Assembly (NCBI GenBank): GCA_019914945.1
Contig: CM034109.1
Span: 806,001 to 870,000 of the forward strand
Length of the DNA: 64,000 bases
Source of the DNA: Typha latifolia
Taxonomy: Eukaryota; Streptophyta; Magnoliopsida; Poales; Typhaceae
Direction: 5' to 3'
The notes beneath the pieces are model-generated. The model did not search any database. It saw only the letters and a list, made by a program, of their open reading frames with translations, and had not been told where the DNA came from. How positions within the stretch are numbered: position 1 is the stretch's first letter; every line of letters begins with the position of its first letter. The position numbers were made by a program, and so were the translations under genes. Positions 43,379 to 51,954 of the stretch are shown here, piece after piece.

Positions 43379-43842
43379 TCAGCAGTGAACCTGCATGCTT
43401 GCAGCAGACATCTTGAAGGCTCTATCCCATGCATACCTAAACTTGACTGAGGCCATACTAGAGATTCTCTGGCCATTGTTCACAAGGTAGGAGATCCCCT
43501 CGAGGCGAAACGCCCTGCGGTCGACCGGCATGGAGCTGGAGAAGCCCTCCGACCGCAGGAATACCTTCGACAGCGCGCAGCGGCACGAGTTCTTCACCTC
43601 TACTTCAAACACTGGATCATAGCCAACCTTCAGTCCTGTGTTTGTCTGCTGCACCTTCACACTTGACAGACCACAAGGCTGGCTCTTGCCTGCAGTTTGT
43701 AACAAATAAGTGCAACAAGTAAGTAATTAAGCTACAGAAACAATACAATATTTTTGAGTGCTGAAGCTTGTGAACTTACAGTACCTTTTGCAAAGATGCA
43801 GAAGAGGAGGAATGAAACTAGTAGCTTGAGAGCAGGTGCCAT
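43379..43842 (-). CDS. TPD1-like small secreted protein, copy 1 (reduced cysteines)
   Basis: Two exons, 43785-43842 and 43379-43689, give 122 residues. TPD1-type proteins are secreted ligands; TPD1 itself signals through the EMS1 receptor kinase in anthers, but the role of this shorter subgroup is not settled. Residues 1-18 form a signal peptide (MAPALKLLVSFLLFCIF). The mature part has PCGLSSVKVQQ, EVEVKNSCRCALSKVFL, LVNNGQRIS, VKFRYAWD and a terminal HC. Relative to the other three copies it keeps the first cysteine, the CxC pair and the last one. It has S where LRC(Y)G or LDC(T)G has cysteine, and Y where RC(V/I/A) has it, so four of six remain. The intron position and phase are identical in all four copies. 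Confidence 0.85.
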
Positions 43843-45378: not shown

Positions 45379-45689
45379 TTCATGCCTAGACGTGATCATC
45401 GGGTGGGCCGGGCCGGGTTCGGGCCAGGCTAACCGGGCTTAAACATTTGTCCACGGCCCAACCCACCAATCACTCGGGCCGGGTCGGGTTCGGGCCGGGC
45501 TAGAATAGTCTAGCCCGTTACCGCTCGTCGGCTTGTGAGATATCGGGTTGGCCGGGCCGGGCTCTGCCAATTAAGATTTTTAGTGAACCCAACCTGTGAG
45601 ATATTGGACAAGATCACAAGAGCCAGGATGCTGGCTTTGGCGGCGGCGCCGCGGCGGAAGGGGCGAGATCTCGCGGCTGAAAGGCGGGG

Positions 45690-46024
45690 TCAACGGTAGA
45701 GCTCTAAATCTCCTACCTCCGGAGCCGTAATGTCCTGATGAAGCTGCGGACGCCGATGATCTCGGGCGGATCTCACGCTGCTCGAGTAATGCCTCCTGTG
45801 AGGTGCCGCCGAAATAGCCTCCATTATGGTATATCAACCAGAAGAGACGACGCCGACGAGTGCTCTAAGGTACAAATAGGCCGATCTGAAATCGACGCCG
45901 GGATGGCGCCGCCTGAGGCCGAGATCGAGGAGTTCTTCGCTGCGGCTGAGCGCGCCGAGCGGCGACGGTTCGCTGACGACAAGAATGGATCCAAGTGTGA
46001 CAAACACAAGGGTCCAAGGTATTG
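45690..46024 (+). pseudogene. KRP/ICK (CDK inhibitor) gene fragment inside the hAT element
   Basis: The segment is much more GC-rich than its surroundings. The frame from 45738 encodes AEIEEFFAAAERAERRRFAD at residues 61-80 (about 45918-45977), the start of the conserved C-terminal CDK/cyclin-binding motif of plant Kip-related proteins, where EIEEFFAAAE...RF is normally followed by a KYNFD-type core. Here it runs into DKNGSKCDKH and a stop, so the binding core is missing. In the same frame just upstream, YLRSR resembles the YLxLRSRR motif of KRPs, and another frame has GRALNL, like the TRARALAL motif. The fragment is frameshifted and truncated. The identification rests on remembered family motifs. 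Confidence 0.6.
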
Positions 46025-46623
46025 AGGTAGGTAAGGTACCGCTTTCGGCCGCGAGATCTAGCTGGACTCGCCCCCTCCGTAGCTTGGACGGTTGGACCTT
46101 GGGCAAATGGGCAAAATGGCAAATGAAGATTGTCAAATTGGAGAGACAGAGAAAGTGAGAGAGTTTGGTTTTGTGGAGTCTTGTCATTATGTCATAGTTG
46201 ATAGTTGTGCCATTGTGGGTGGTGGCCAGCTGTTGCCAGTTGGCCACTACCCATTTGGCCAATTTTCTTTTTTACTCGGGCTATCACTTGGCGGCATTTT
46301 TAGAGTTTTATATAAAATACTCCATATTATTATTCACACCGCGTTCGAACACGAAAAATAGGCGTTCGCACATACAAAGAACGCATTGTAAATAAAGTAA
46401 ATAAAAAATTAGAATTAAAATAAATAAAAATAAATGAGCAGATATAAAAAATAAATAGTTAAACAAATGAGTAAATAGAAATATTTTTATAATTAAATAA
46501 ATAGTTACACCAAAATTAGGAGGATTTTTTTTGCACCACTATAGAATGAGCACATCCCAACTAGGTTGGCACCTACCCACCTATCTATCATTTGCATAAT
46601 GAGAAATTCTTTTAAAAACATCT

Positions 46624-47070
46624 CTTCTAATTGTATGACGAGCCCATAGCAAAATGTTTATTTCTACGAATAATATATTCAACTATTTCTTTACGAGCAT
46701 TTTCATAATTCAATTGAAAATTAGAAATATTTTCAGAAGCACCTTGATTAAGCAACATTTGACTAATATCAAGTTGACCTTTTTTATTCTTATCTTTAAT
46801 ATGCCTCATTGGGTGAGTAGTGTAATTCTTAGTTAATGCAGAAAAATTATGATTACATTGAAGTCATTTAGCTCTACAATCTATAATATTACCTTAGCCA
46901 TATTTAGTTTCAATCATTTTGAAATACTTCCAAACTTCGAACTTTAATCTCTTAGAACTGCCCGATGATGAAGCCGAAGCCAGAATTTCCAGATCATGTT
47001 GAGGTTGAGATGCGGGTGTATGATTAATTGAATCTCCGCTCTCCAATTGAGATTCTATATGATCCCATAT
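46624..47070 (-). pseudogene. hAT transposase N-terminal (BED zinc finger) remnant
   Basis: Read on the minus strand, one frame gives SGSSKRLKFEVWKYFKMIET and then a stop. It resembles the opening of plant hAT transposases (S-x-VWxxF, BED finger). Downstream, HPMRHIKDKNKKG fits the second half of the finger (H-x-x-R-H) and is followed by NYENARKEIVEYIIRRNKHF. Stops and frame breaks separate the pieces and the large catalytic and dimerisation parts are absent. Confidence 0.7.
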
Positions 47071-47733
47071 TGAAGAGAATTTGCTAATTTGAATGCTAAA
47101 AATTTTGAAATCTTTAATTTGGAAAGAACTTGAGAGATTAGAGGATTTGAGAATGTGTGATGAATTTCGAAAATTTATTATCTCTTTATAAGCACGAGAA
47201 AATTTAAAATTACCAAAATATCCCTATAAACTAGTTGTTTATTTCTGTTAAAAGGGTAAAATGGTAAAAAAAAAGTAGAGGTCCTATTTTTCTAATTTTC
47301 TGAAATATTTAGCTATTTTTAGAATATTTTTTACCGTTACATATTTTTTTTAAATATATTTTTGTTCTTCTCTGTTTAAAAAAAAAGTATATTAAAAAAA
47401 TTAAATAGTACACAGGCTGATATGTGATGGGAGATGGGCTAAAAAATTTAAACAATACTTGTACTTGGGCTGAATTGTGATGGGAGATATGGGCTAAAAA
47501 AATTATAAAACGGTACAGTGTACAAAATTTCCCGTTATTTTTTACTGTAGTAGAGGGCCGAACAATGATCACTAAGCCTAACGGGTGGGCGGGCCTAACG
47601 GGCAGGCCAAACGGGCGGGCTTTCGGGCCGAGCCGGGCAGGCAAAGGGTTGGCCCGTGCCACCCATTGGTAGACCGGGCTAAGCCCGGCCCGGCACGGGC
47701 GGGCTGGGCCCAATGATGAGGTCTACTCATGCC

Positions 47734-48228: not shown

Positions 48229-48691
48229 TCAGCAATGTGTGAGAGAGCTAACGAGAGGGAAATCCTGCGGCGTCGTCCACGCGTACTTGAACCTCACCGG
48301 CATGCCCTTCGATATCGGCCGGCCGTTCCCGAGGACGCAGCGCTCCTCGTCCACCGGCCGGATCGCCCGGGGGTCGACCGCCTCCACGCTGCTGAGGCCG
48401 TAGCACCGCAGGACGACCTTCGACTGCGCGCACCGGCATTTGTTCCTCACCGACACCACGTACTCCGGCTTCCCTTCCACCACCCGCCCCGTCCGCGACT
48501 GCGTCACGGTGATGTCCGACGCCATGCATGCGCCTCCTTCGCCTGCATAACATATATACATATATAGCACGTAAAATATTACCATCAACAAGAAGAAGAA
48601 GAGCTAATTCTGTGTGATAATATTTACCTTCAGGTATACAGCAGGCGAGAATAGCAGCAAAGAATAAGGTGAGAAAGGCTCTTCTTGCCAT
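48229..48691 (-). CDS. TPD1-like small secreted protein, copy 2 (GC-rich)
   Basis: Two exons, 48628-48691 and 48229-48542, give 125 residues. A signal peptide (RAFLTLFFAAILACC) precedes the mature domain: ACMASDITVTQSRTGRVVEG, VVSVRNKCRCAQSKVVLRC, RCVLGNGRPISKG, VRFKYAWTT and a terminal THC. All six family cysteines are present. The second exon is strikingly GC-rich, unlike the other three copies and the AT-rich surroundings, as is common for one class of monocot genes. This GC bias opens long false frames on the other strand. Role as a putative extracellular ligand is inferred from the family. Confidence 0.88.
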
Positions 48692-50924: not shown

Positions 50925-51954
50925 TCAGCATTTGATCTGCGAGTTGACCGGAGCAAATCCAAACTTTGTATCGGATGCGTATCGGAATATGATCAAGGAG
51001 CCACGAATAATTGGTCGTCGATTATTAACGATGCACCGATCTCGGCTAATCAATTTGAGGTTCATTGGATTCACTGGCTCAGCAGTGTTGAAGCCAGTGC
51101 AGTCCAATTGCACATTTGATTGAGTACAAGTGCAGTCATTGCTAACCACTACCTCATACTCAGTCTTTCCAGACACTTTCAAGCCTGTCTCCCTTTGATC
51201 CACTGTGATGTCTGCAAGGCTGCAATCTGCACTACCTGCAAATCATATTGGTAGTTGTTTGAGAATAGATTAGCATTTTGATGAAAGATAGTGATATTGG
51301 TAGAATAATATATTTAAAAATATATATAATGTATCATACTCTATATTTTGTGATTATTATCATTAAAACCTTCTCTCTTCTACTTTTATTCCCTAAAAAA
51401 AGTTCTACAAATATAAGTATGTTTAGTAATAACAACACATATTAGTTATATCTAAAAACATAATTATTCTAACTTTCTTAATAATGCACATATGAAAACC
51501 GTCAACCGACTATCTTATCCTTAATTCTCTAACTTTTTCTTTTAAAATAAGGGTGAAACCGTCTCTAAATGCCTAAATTTATTACCCGACGGTCGTAAAA
51601 ATTCAAACAAACAACTAATGGAAGAGGCATTTAAAAAGTTTTATAATTAACCTTAAAAAACATGAAGCAATAGTTTAGACGGTTTAGATATAATTATCCC
51701 TAAAACAGAAGACAAATGATAATATTTTGTTTATAAATTTCTCTGAAATAAATGACAACTTCTTTAAGTTATATTCATATATTCACTTACTTGATATTCA
51801 TTACAATATCTTACCGAAAAATACAATCACATACATATAAAAATATAGACATAATATATATATAGAGAGAGAGAGAGAGAAGAGGGGTATAACCTGCTTT
51901 AAAGATGCAAAACAGAGTAAGATAAACTAAGAGGAGCTTGAGAAAGGATGCCAT
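50925..51954 (-). CDS. TPD1-like small secreted protein, copy 3
   Basis: Two exons, 51894-51954 and 50925-51235, give 123 residues; the 658-bp intron carries a TATATA/GAGAGA microsatellite near its donor. Signal peptide MASFLKLLLVYLTLFCIFKA, then ADCSLADITVDQRETGLKVS, EYEVVVSNDCTCTQSN, LDCTGFNT, RCIVNNRRPIIRG, FRYASD and a terminal KC. All six cysteines are kept. It is roughly 80-85% identical by eye to copy 4 in protein, and the surrounding DNA is also similar, so the pair arose by recent tandem duplication. CTATATATAC on the minus strand at 52003-52012 is a likely TATA box. It is a putative secreted ligand of unknown receptor. Confidence 0.88.

What the first reader, a model, noticed from the sequence alone, without database searches (positions are those of the whole stretch)
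45387..47725. hAT-type element that appears to have captured a cell-cycle inhibitor (KRP) gene fragment
The ends, an inverted repeat starting TAGAC.T.ATCAT.GGG with an 8-bp target duplication, and a BED-finger remnant mark this as a hAT element. Its interior also holds an unusually GC-rich segment encoding AEIEEFFAAAERAERRRFAD, the opening of the plant KRP CDK-binding motif, preceded by YLRSR and GRALNL patches in the KRP order. Gene capture is well known for Mutator and Helitron elements but much less often reported for hAT. A transcript across it could yield small RNAs against the parent gene.
Basis: partly seen in the sequence, partly recalled or inferred. Interest (0 to 1): 0.8.

Follow-up and report, generated by a model that had tools for sequence, protein, structure and literature searches.

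The report
Jumping gene carrying a cell-cycle-gene piece
A cattail "jumping gene" of a common plant type (hAT) really does carry a copied piece of one of the plant's own cell-division brake genes; sister copies carry pieces of other genes in the same spot, and the cell-cycle piece now looks like decaying cargo, not a working gene.

Summary
Window 45387-47725 is a hAT element with terminal inverted repeats and a 7-of-8 target duplication. It is an internal-deletion derivative keeping only a broken transposase N-terminus. Its GC-rich interior is a fragment of a KRP (CDK-inhibitor) gene whose intact parent lies in the same genome (G000:C4:13924732-13923890), 94% identical over 136 bp of exon 3. 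The genome is most likely Typha latifolia. I count 28 loci with the fragment, window included; where the ends survive, the outer breakpoints agree. Several are 3.9-4.1 kb elements with (broken) transposase genes. Two copies keep the parent's introns, so genomic DNA was captured, most simply once; a later deletion removed intron 1-exon 2-intron 2. Sibling elements hold CDPK-type kinase or PATROL1 pieces in the same slot, and two short KRP elements also took up an F-box piece. The left joint looks like microhomology-guided template switching. The KRP frame changes about as expected without selection, and copies show CG/CHG decay. Gene-capturing hATs are known (grapevine Hatvine-6, maize Ds, Pack-hAT), so this is a new, well-resolved member of a known kind. 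Small-RNA action on the parent is possible but untested.

The parts
45387..47725 (.). hAT element, internal-deletion derivative (2339 bp)
   Evidence: TIRs and target duplication; 83 alignments in the own genome, itself included, with 40 of 577 candidates scored
45379..45386 (.). target site duplication, left (TTCATGCC)
   Evidence: 7 of 8 with the right flank
47726..47733 (.). target site duplication, right (CTCATGCC)
45387..45403 (+). left terminal inverted repeat TAGACGTGATCATCGGG
   Evidence: same sequence ends many other copies
47709..47725 (-). right terminal inverted repeat TAGACCTCATCATTGGG (read on minus)
   Evidence: 14 of 17 to the left TIR
45595..45607 (+). filler: second copy of the element's own stretch at 45534-45546, at the left border of the KRP piece
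   Evidence: direct repeat D6, 92%; left joints printed for 14 elements, one of them (C3:6875691) a wrong match
45616..45844 (+). captured KRP exon 1 fragment (gene positions 79-345 counted from the ATG), with indels and frame breaks
   Evidence: BLAST to parent, 72% gapped
45843..45977 (+). captured KRP exon 3 fragment (gene 535-670), N-terminal half of the CDI motif
   Evidence: 128 of 136 identical to parent
45708..46025 (+). relict/chance ORF (105 codons) across the exon 1-exon 3 joint; its exon 3 part is in the KRP frame from MAPPEAEIEE on
   Evidence: no scored protein hit
46039..46078 (-). inverted duplicate of KRP exon 1 (gene about 97-138), with a 9-base insertion; can pair with about 45655-45695 in a long hairpin stem
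   Evidence: inverted repeat I2, inverted hits to the parent in sister copies, duplex -59.2 kcal/mol; limits set by eye
46600..46643 (.). internal deletion joint: about 1.5 kb of transposase gene missing, with a 39-bp retained island
46627..46788 (-). transposase remnant after the BED finger
   Evidence: ORF 46627-46863, matched by eye to the piece of copy C6:6450690 that holds a zf-BED
46789..46940 (-). BED zinc-finger remnant broken by two in-frame stops
   Evidence: read by eye; homologous stretch of a sister copy has PF02892 at 35.1 bits

Best explanation
The feature is a non-autonomous copy of a hAT family of cattail (most likely Typha latifolia) that picks up host gene pieces in one internal slot, between the left ~200 bp and the 3' side of the transposase gene. 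SHOWN: the KRP piece comes from gene C4:13924732-13923890. Two copies still hold it with introns 1 and 2, while most others lack intron 1-exon 2-intron 2. It sits at 28 loci, in complete elements with TIRs and target duplications at 12 of them. Sibling elements carry kinase (CDPK-type) and PATROL1 pieces in the same slot, and two short KRP elements also hold an F-box piece. INFERRED: the intron-bearing form is ancestral. The pieces entered when a break or gap inside an element was repaired, with the new strand switching at 2-4 bp matches to the element itself and then to KRP genomic DNA. The piece has since ridden along as silenced passenger DNA that decays without selection. Any effect on the parent KRP gene would more likely come from RNA than from a protein.
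For: Parent and breakpoints. 28 loci with the fragment: my count (30 of 30 candidates scored, 42 alignments). In the 27 of these that one search aligned to the parent, the left end lies at gene 76-79 in 23 and the right end at 669-678 in 24. Target duplications: of the 12 complete KRP elements extracted, 8 perfect and 4 with 7 of 8. Intron-bearing copies: C2:10084532-10088620, continuous over gene 78-675 at 87%, and C3:8641785-8643300, aligned to that copy over its bases 1-1398 at 83%. Joint at gene 341-345|535-537 in 19 of 27 copies, GAG on both sides (by eye). Left joint: element, TTTCAGCGGC, CGGCCCGTGAGATATCGG (copied from the element itself about 60 bp upstream), then KRP ACAAGAGCC (by eye). 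Other slot contents: kinase, PATROL1, F-box. Selection not seen: counting each distinct change once in 21 of 26 copies, 68 nonsynonymous or stop changes against 66.9 expected in exon 3 and 118 against 114.6 in exon 1. Decay: C-to-T in CG 14.9%, CHG 13.2%, CHH 4.0%.
Against: On the backbone tree the KRP carriers need 4 label changes, although well-supported branches force only 1, so a single capture rests on shared breakpoints, not on the tree. The raw exon 3 pN/pS over 26 copies is 0.67, which alone could suggest constraint. With the mutation spectrum modelled on 21 copies and every copy counted, exon 3 still has slightly more synonymous changes than expected (37.7% against 32.7%); with distinct changes counted once the excess is gone. 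The expectation uses the spectrum of the same copies and no tree. Template switching is read by eye from old, decayed joints and was not tested against random joints. No unfilled (pre-capture) element was found among those read. One KRP carrier (C3:8639188 end) has flanks agreeing at only 5 of 8.
Confidence: 0.9

Rival explanations
1. Capture by fusion of neighbours: two elements of the family inserted on either side of part of the KRP gene, and an aberrant excision made one hybrid element holding the DNA between them.
For: This is the mechanism described for Pack-CACTA elements (passages of PMC13317346; PMC8903248 has a section on it). The slot lies between a left end and a left-truncated body, as such a hybrid would have.
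Against: No element sequence was found in the held 0.9-3.8 kb stretches at the four parents (BLAST with pieces of one copy); this is weak, since elements can leave. The self-copied filler and the possible remnant of the kinase piece at the left border of the KRP piece fit repair inside an already filled slot better.
Confidence: 0.25
2. The KRP piece is a working part of the element: it makes a truncated CDK-inhibitor peptide (MAPPEAEIEEFFAAAERAERRRFAD...) that shifts the cell cycle in favour of transposition.
For: The 25 codons from the internal ATG are open in the window copy and only 1 distinct stop-making change is seen in exon 3 among 21 copies. Three young copies have a 129-146-codon frame here. 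Counted over every copy, exon 3 has a slight synonymous excess.
Against: Distinct substitutions match a no-selection expectation and one stop is what is expected (1.2). Exon 1 carries indels in 16 of the 21 copies, leaving aside a 2-base alignment ambiguity at the joint. The piece ends about where exon 3 ends, so the second half of the CDI motif is absent. No scored protein hit, although that search is insensitive: it did not return the plant KRPs either.
Confidence: 0.04
3. The fragment copies give small RNAs (from antisense reading from the transposase promoter, or from the exon 1 hairpin) that lower the parent KRP.
For: KRP lies antisense to and downstream of the transposase gene. 395 of 625 bases of the parent transcript stretch are covered by perfect 21-mers found in some copy, with at least one in 25 of 26 copies. 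The window piece folds with a long stem (duplex -59.2 kcal/mol). CG/CHG decay suggests past methylation of the copies.
Against: No small-RNA data here. CHH decay, which RNA-directed methylation would be expected to raise (recalled), is low (4.0%). The hairpin stem of the window copy holds no 21-mer identical to the parent.
Confidence: 0.2
4. The GC-rich part is a chance resemblance or a host KRP pseudogene into which a hAT inserted nearby.
For: Pfam CDI hit of the window ORF is below the cut-off.
Against: 171 bits against 32.6 at most in 200 shuffles; the piece lies inside TIRs and target duplications in 12 complete elements at different places.
Confidence: 0.01

Closest known systems
Hatvine-6 of grapevine (Benjak et al. 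2008, PMC2528002; passages seen)
   Same: hAT family whose members share transposase and TIRs while a variable region often matches genic (introns and exons) and other host sequence
   Different: There the variable region is said to be often unique or shared by few elements; here one KRP piece is found at 28 loci, and an order of captures in one slot can be proposed
Gene-fragment-carrying Ds elements of maize (Du et al. 2011, PMC3260210; abstract part and passages seen)
   Same: hAT elements (2 Ds2, 9 Ds-l4) with filler DNA from genes, introns kept in cases, hence genomic capture
   Different: Those are Ds-type elements; here about 4-kb elements with (broken) transposase genes carry the pieces too
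Pack-hAT / Pack-TYPE elements (Gisby and Catoni 2022, PMC8903248; passages seen)
   Same: TIRs, 8-bp duplication, internal gene pieces, amplified; the window copy and the 849- and 1119-bp elements fit the definition
   Different: Pack-TYPE are defined as non-autonomous; about 4-kb KRP carriers still hold a (broken) transposase gene
Animal Pack-TIRs (Tan et al. 2021, PMC8277862; passages seen)
   Same: hAT is the commonest source (208 of 370); gap filling with microhomology of 1-36 bp (median 2), found at one or both breakpoints of 190 (67.6%) Pack-TIRs
   Different: Those are nearly all single copy; this one is multicopy

Membership tests
hAT superfamily | 8-bp target site duplication | tested here: met
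   window 7 of 8; of 12 complete KRP elements 8 perfect, 4 with 7 of 8; a further KRP carrier 5 of 8
hAT superfamily | short terminal inverted repeats shared by the family | tested here: met
hAT superfamily | transposase with BED finger, RNase-H-like core and hAT dimerisation region | tested here: met
   in separate pieces of copy C6:6450690-6454629: zf-BED 35.1, hAT-like_RNase-H 29.3, Dimer_Tnp_hAT 91.8 bits; in the window copy only a broken N-terminal part remains
Pack-hAT (Pack-TYPE) | internal gene-derived DNA with an identifiable parent elsewhere | tested here: met
   KRP parent on C4
Pack-hAT (Pack-TYPE) | non-autonomous (no functional transposase) | tested here: met
   window copy lacks about 1.5 kb of the transposase gene. 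The 8 long KRP copies show no continuous transposase frame (introns not excluded); other family members not examined for this
Plant KRP/ICK CDK inhibitors | complete C-terminal CDI motif | tested here: not met
   window fragment covers only profile positions 5-28 of 49, 14.3 bits; parent protein 61.6 bits
Plant KRP/ICK CDK inhibitors | reading frame kept by selection | tested here: not met
   change pattern close to the no-selection expectation, frameshifts and stops
small-RNA-producing locus | 21-24-nt RNAs mapping here | not testable with these tools
   no RNA data; only sequence potential

The most novel reading that the evidence does not exclude
One internal slot of this hAT family is a recurrent capture site: it has been filled and refilled in series (kinase piece first, then PATROL1 in one branch and KRP in another, then an F-box piece inside KRP). 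Refills can leave a small remnant of the previous piece, so the elements record successive repair events, and the antisense KRP pieces at 28 loci supply RNA against a host cell-cycle inhibitor.
Probability: 0.25. Interest if true: 0.6.

Novelty: new member of a known kind. Interest (0 to 1): 0.42.

Why it matters
How cut-and-paste elements pick up host genes is not settled. This family gives parent genes, an intron-keeping form, derived forms and pieces of four host genes in one slot within one assembled genome, so the order of events and the joints can be studied. If small RNAs from the KRP copies reach the parent gene, it would also link a transposon to a host cell-division inhibitor.

Tried and rejected
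Spliced-RNA (cDNA) capture was considered because introns 1 and 2 are missing. It was dropped: two copies keep them, the joint enters exon 3 several bases inside the splice site, and the capture runs a few bases into intron 3 in 6 of the 8 right joints printed (the window and C4:11170100 are rearranged there). A kinase-piece element likewise lacks about 125 bp of coding DNA that is no intron.

Selection on the KRP frame was tested and not clearly found. The first count used 26 copies, some with F-box or other foreign DNA aligned in the stretch compared; 5 of 26 were dropped for the second (held stretches C15:1375742, C7:2516134, C1:8070699, C13:2867615, C14:7027281). A 27th carrier (C12:4580048) was left out of the multiple alignment, and the 28th (C3:8641960) was fetched later and not included.

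Search for annotated proteins like the window ORF (4 candidates, none scored) and like the 283-codon ORF of the short C15 element (only the Typha angustifolia KRP, over 6% of the query; no Pfam hit): no annotated chimeric gene seen, but the tool needs shared 5-residue words and a similar length.

Solved-structure search with the window ORF gave nothing. Literature searches. None of the listed titles and abstract starts is about a transposon-captured KRP; most listed papers were not opened.

Full report
What is there. The window lies at G000:C11:806001-870000 of a 214-Mb, 62-contig assembly. The species is inferred, not given: a protein search with the parent KRP listed a Typha latifolia CDK inhibitor on a contig of 9,974,500 bases, exactly the length of contig C13 here. 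Typha angustifolia has 15 chromosomes (PMC10230045, passages), and the contigs that appear here, C1-C15, are 9-24 Mb long.

Element 45387-47725. Terminal inverted repeats TAGACGTGATCATCGGG / TAGACCTCATCATTGGG (14 of 17) and flanks TTCATGCC / CTCATGCC (7 of 8) mark a hAT insertion. Compared with the 3993-bp copy C12:4411945-4415937, the window copy lacks about 1.5 kb of the transposase gene (at element positions 1214-1257, with a 39-bp retained island). On the minus strand it keeps only an N-terminal part. The BED finger is broken by two stops (by eye) and scores no Pfam hit. Separate open pieces of sister copy C6:6450690-6454629 score zf-BED 35.1, hAT-like RNase-H 29.3 and Dimer_Tnp_hAT 91.8 bits. 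None of the 8 long copies (3.3-4.1 kb) shows one continuous transposase frame in that listing (longest 408 codons, C6), so no autonomous copy was shown; introns were not modelled.

The KRP piece. The parent gene reads as a 194-aa protein with a full CDI domain (61.6 bits); its best hits are 97% to T. angustifolia and 62% to oil palm. Its exons, counted from the ATG, are 1-345, 427-455, 532-672 and 774 onward (with the exon 3 end fixed by eye). The window matches exon 1 from position 79 to 345 (72%, gapped) and exon 3 from 535 to 670 (128 of 136). A dinucleotide-shuffle control gave at most 32.6 bits in 200 trials against 171 bits.

Copies. A DNA search with window 45600-46110 scored all 30 candidate places and gave 42 alignments. 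From these I count 28 loci with KRP-derived DNA, window included, plus the parent; one further 44-bp hit lies outside the KRP part. One search aligned 27 of the 28 to the parent (the C3:8641960 copy was fetched later). The left end lies at gene 76-79 in 23 of 27 and the right end at 669-678 in 24 of 27; the others are cut or run on. Of the 12 complete elements extracted, 8 have perfect and 4 have 7-of-8 duplications; the C3 copy's flanks agree at 5 of 8.

How it was captured. Copy C2:10084532-10088620 aligns to gene 78-675 without a break, introns included, at 87%, and C3 (L081) aligns to it along its first 1398 bases at 83%. In 6 of 8 right joints printed, the copy runs a few bases into intron 3. 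So genomic DNA was taken up. In 19 of 27 copies gene 341-345 is joined to 535-537, leaving out intron 1, exon 2 and intron 2; GAG occurs on both sides of the joint, so a microhomology deletion is the simplest reading. Three young copies have a longer deletion, two hold F-box DNA there, and three are otherwise cut or continuous. Part of the family also gained an inverted duplicate of exon 1 positions about 97-138, which in the window can pair with the sense copy (duplex -59.2 kcal/mol).

Other genes in the same slot. The sibling at C11:6003308 to about 6006890 (its left TIR was not found) carries an antisense kinase piece (PF00069, 49 bits). Its parent-like gene, a CDPK by eye, is at C6:962974-963434 (88-89%). 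Related pieces lie at C1:9556111, C3:10956808, C8:7428694, C14:4032742, C5:15477979 and C5:8083163, each with element left-end sequence next to it. Elements at C15:698655, C15:707688 and C12:1242057 carry a PATROL1 piece beside a kinase-piece remnant. Its parent is at C14:405322-405710 (93%), where an open frame scores PF25761 at 356 bits. Two short KRP elements, C7:2517433-2518281 (849 bp) and C15:1376985-1378103 (1119 bp), hold about 270 bp of an F-box gene between the KRP exon pieces. Its parents are a tandem trio at C10:992207-997607; the alignment is 98% for C7 and 97% for C15.

Order and mechanism. Elements of all three slot types share GATTAAGATTTTCAGCGGC, or a close variant, at the left of the slot (14 elements printed, of which C3:6875691 matched a wrong place and C3:8643300 is shorter). 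In kinase-piece elements this runs on into the kinase gene, whose own sequence reads TTTCAGCGGCGAGTTC. In the best-kept KRP elements it is followed by CGGCCCGTGAGATATCGG, a copy of the element's own sequence about 60 bp upstream, and then by KRP. This reads as kinase piece first, KRP later, with switches at CGGC and CGG. It could instead mean that the stretch is native and gave the kinase piece its match. The tree of 27 backbones (16 KRP, 3 PATROL1, 2 kinase, 6 unknown slots) groups labels better than shuffled ones (6 changes against 10.4 on average). But KRP needs 4 changes where well-supported branches force 1, one PATROL1 element falls among KRP carriers in an unresolved fork, and the bootstrap had not settled. 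I therefore hold the serial order as likely, not shown. No element sequence was found in the 0.9-3.8 kb held at the four parents, which speaks weakly against fusion of neighbouring elements.

Fate. With the mutation spectrum taken from the copies themselves, and each distinct change counted once, 21 of 26 aligned copies show 68 nonsynonymous-or-stop changes in exon 3 (66.9 expected) and 118 in exon 1 (114.6 expected), with 1 and 7 stops (1.2 and 4.8 expected). Counted over every copy, exon 3 has a slight synonymous excess (37.7% against 32.7% expected). The raw pN/pS with 26 copies were 0.67 (exon 3) and 0.87 (exon 1). C-to-T change is 14.9% in CG (336 of 2249), 13.2% in CHG (178 of 1348) and 4.0% in CHH (65 of 1635; 21 copies), as expected of DNA kept methylated in CG and CHG (inference). 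The piece looks like silenced cargo. It could still make RNA: 395 of 625 bases of the parent transcript stretch have a perfect 21-mer in some copy, and 25 of 26 copies share at least one. The hairpin stem of the window copy has none of these.

Known background. Grapevine Hatvine-6 shows the same behaviour; maize Ds elements with gene pieces were called a rare feature of hATs in 2011; Pack-hATs were later annotated, above all in maize; microhomology-guided gap filling was proposed for animal Pack-TIRs, most often hAT. I saw passages of these papers, not the whole texts. The finding is a new, unusually well-resolved member of this kind. In the searches made no listed title or abstract start described a KRP capture or this Typha family.

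Noticed in passing
window 43379-43726, 48229-48603, 50925-51242 (minus strand): Three TPD1-type genes (PF24068, 91.5-105.1 bits) in a row; the hAT element sits between the first two.
   Followed up: partly
G000:C15:698655-707688 (L048, L049, L078, L079): Two PATROL1-bearing elements in opposite orientation about 0.9 kb apart; AGCATGCT flanks the right end of one and the outer end of the other, and the remaining flanks do not match, as after an inversion between copies.
   Followed up: no
G000:C11:263843-267915 (L054, L075): A sibling element with a changed left end (ATGAGGTGATCATCAGG), perfect duplication GCTGCCAT, and a GC-rich stretch of unknown origin in the slot region.
   Followed up: no
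L027:1246-2094 (minus): In the 1119-bp element an open frame of 283 codons runs through KRP, antisense F-box and KRP pieces to the right end; the 849-bp element has one of 237 codons. Probably an effect of high GC.
   Followed up: partly
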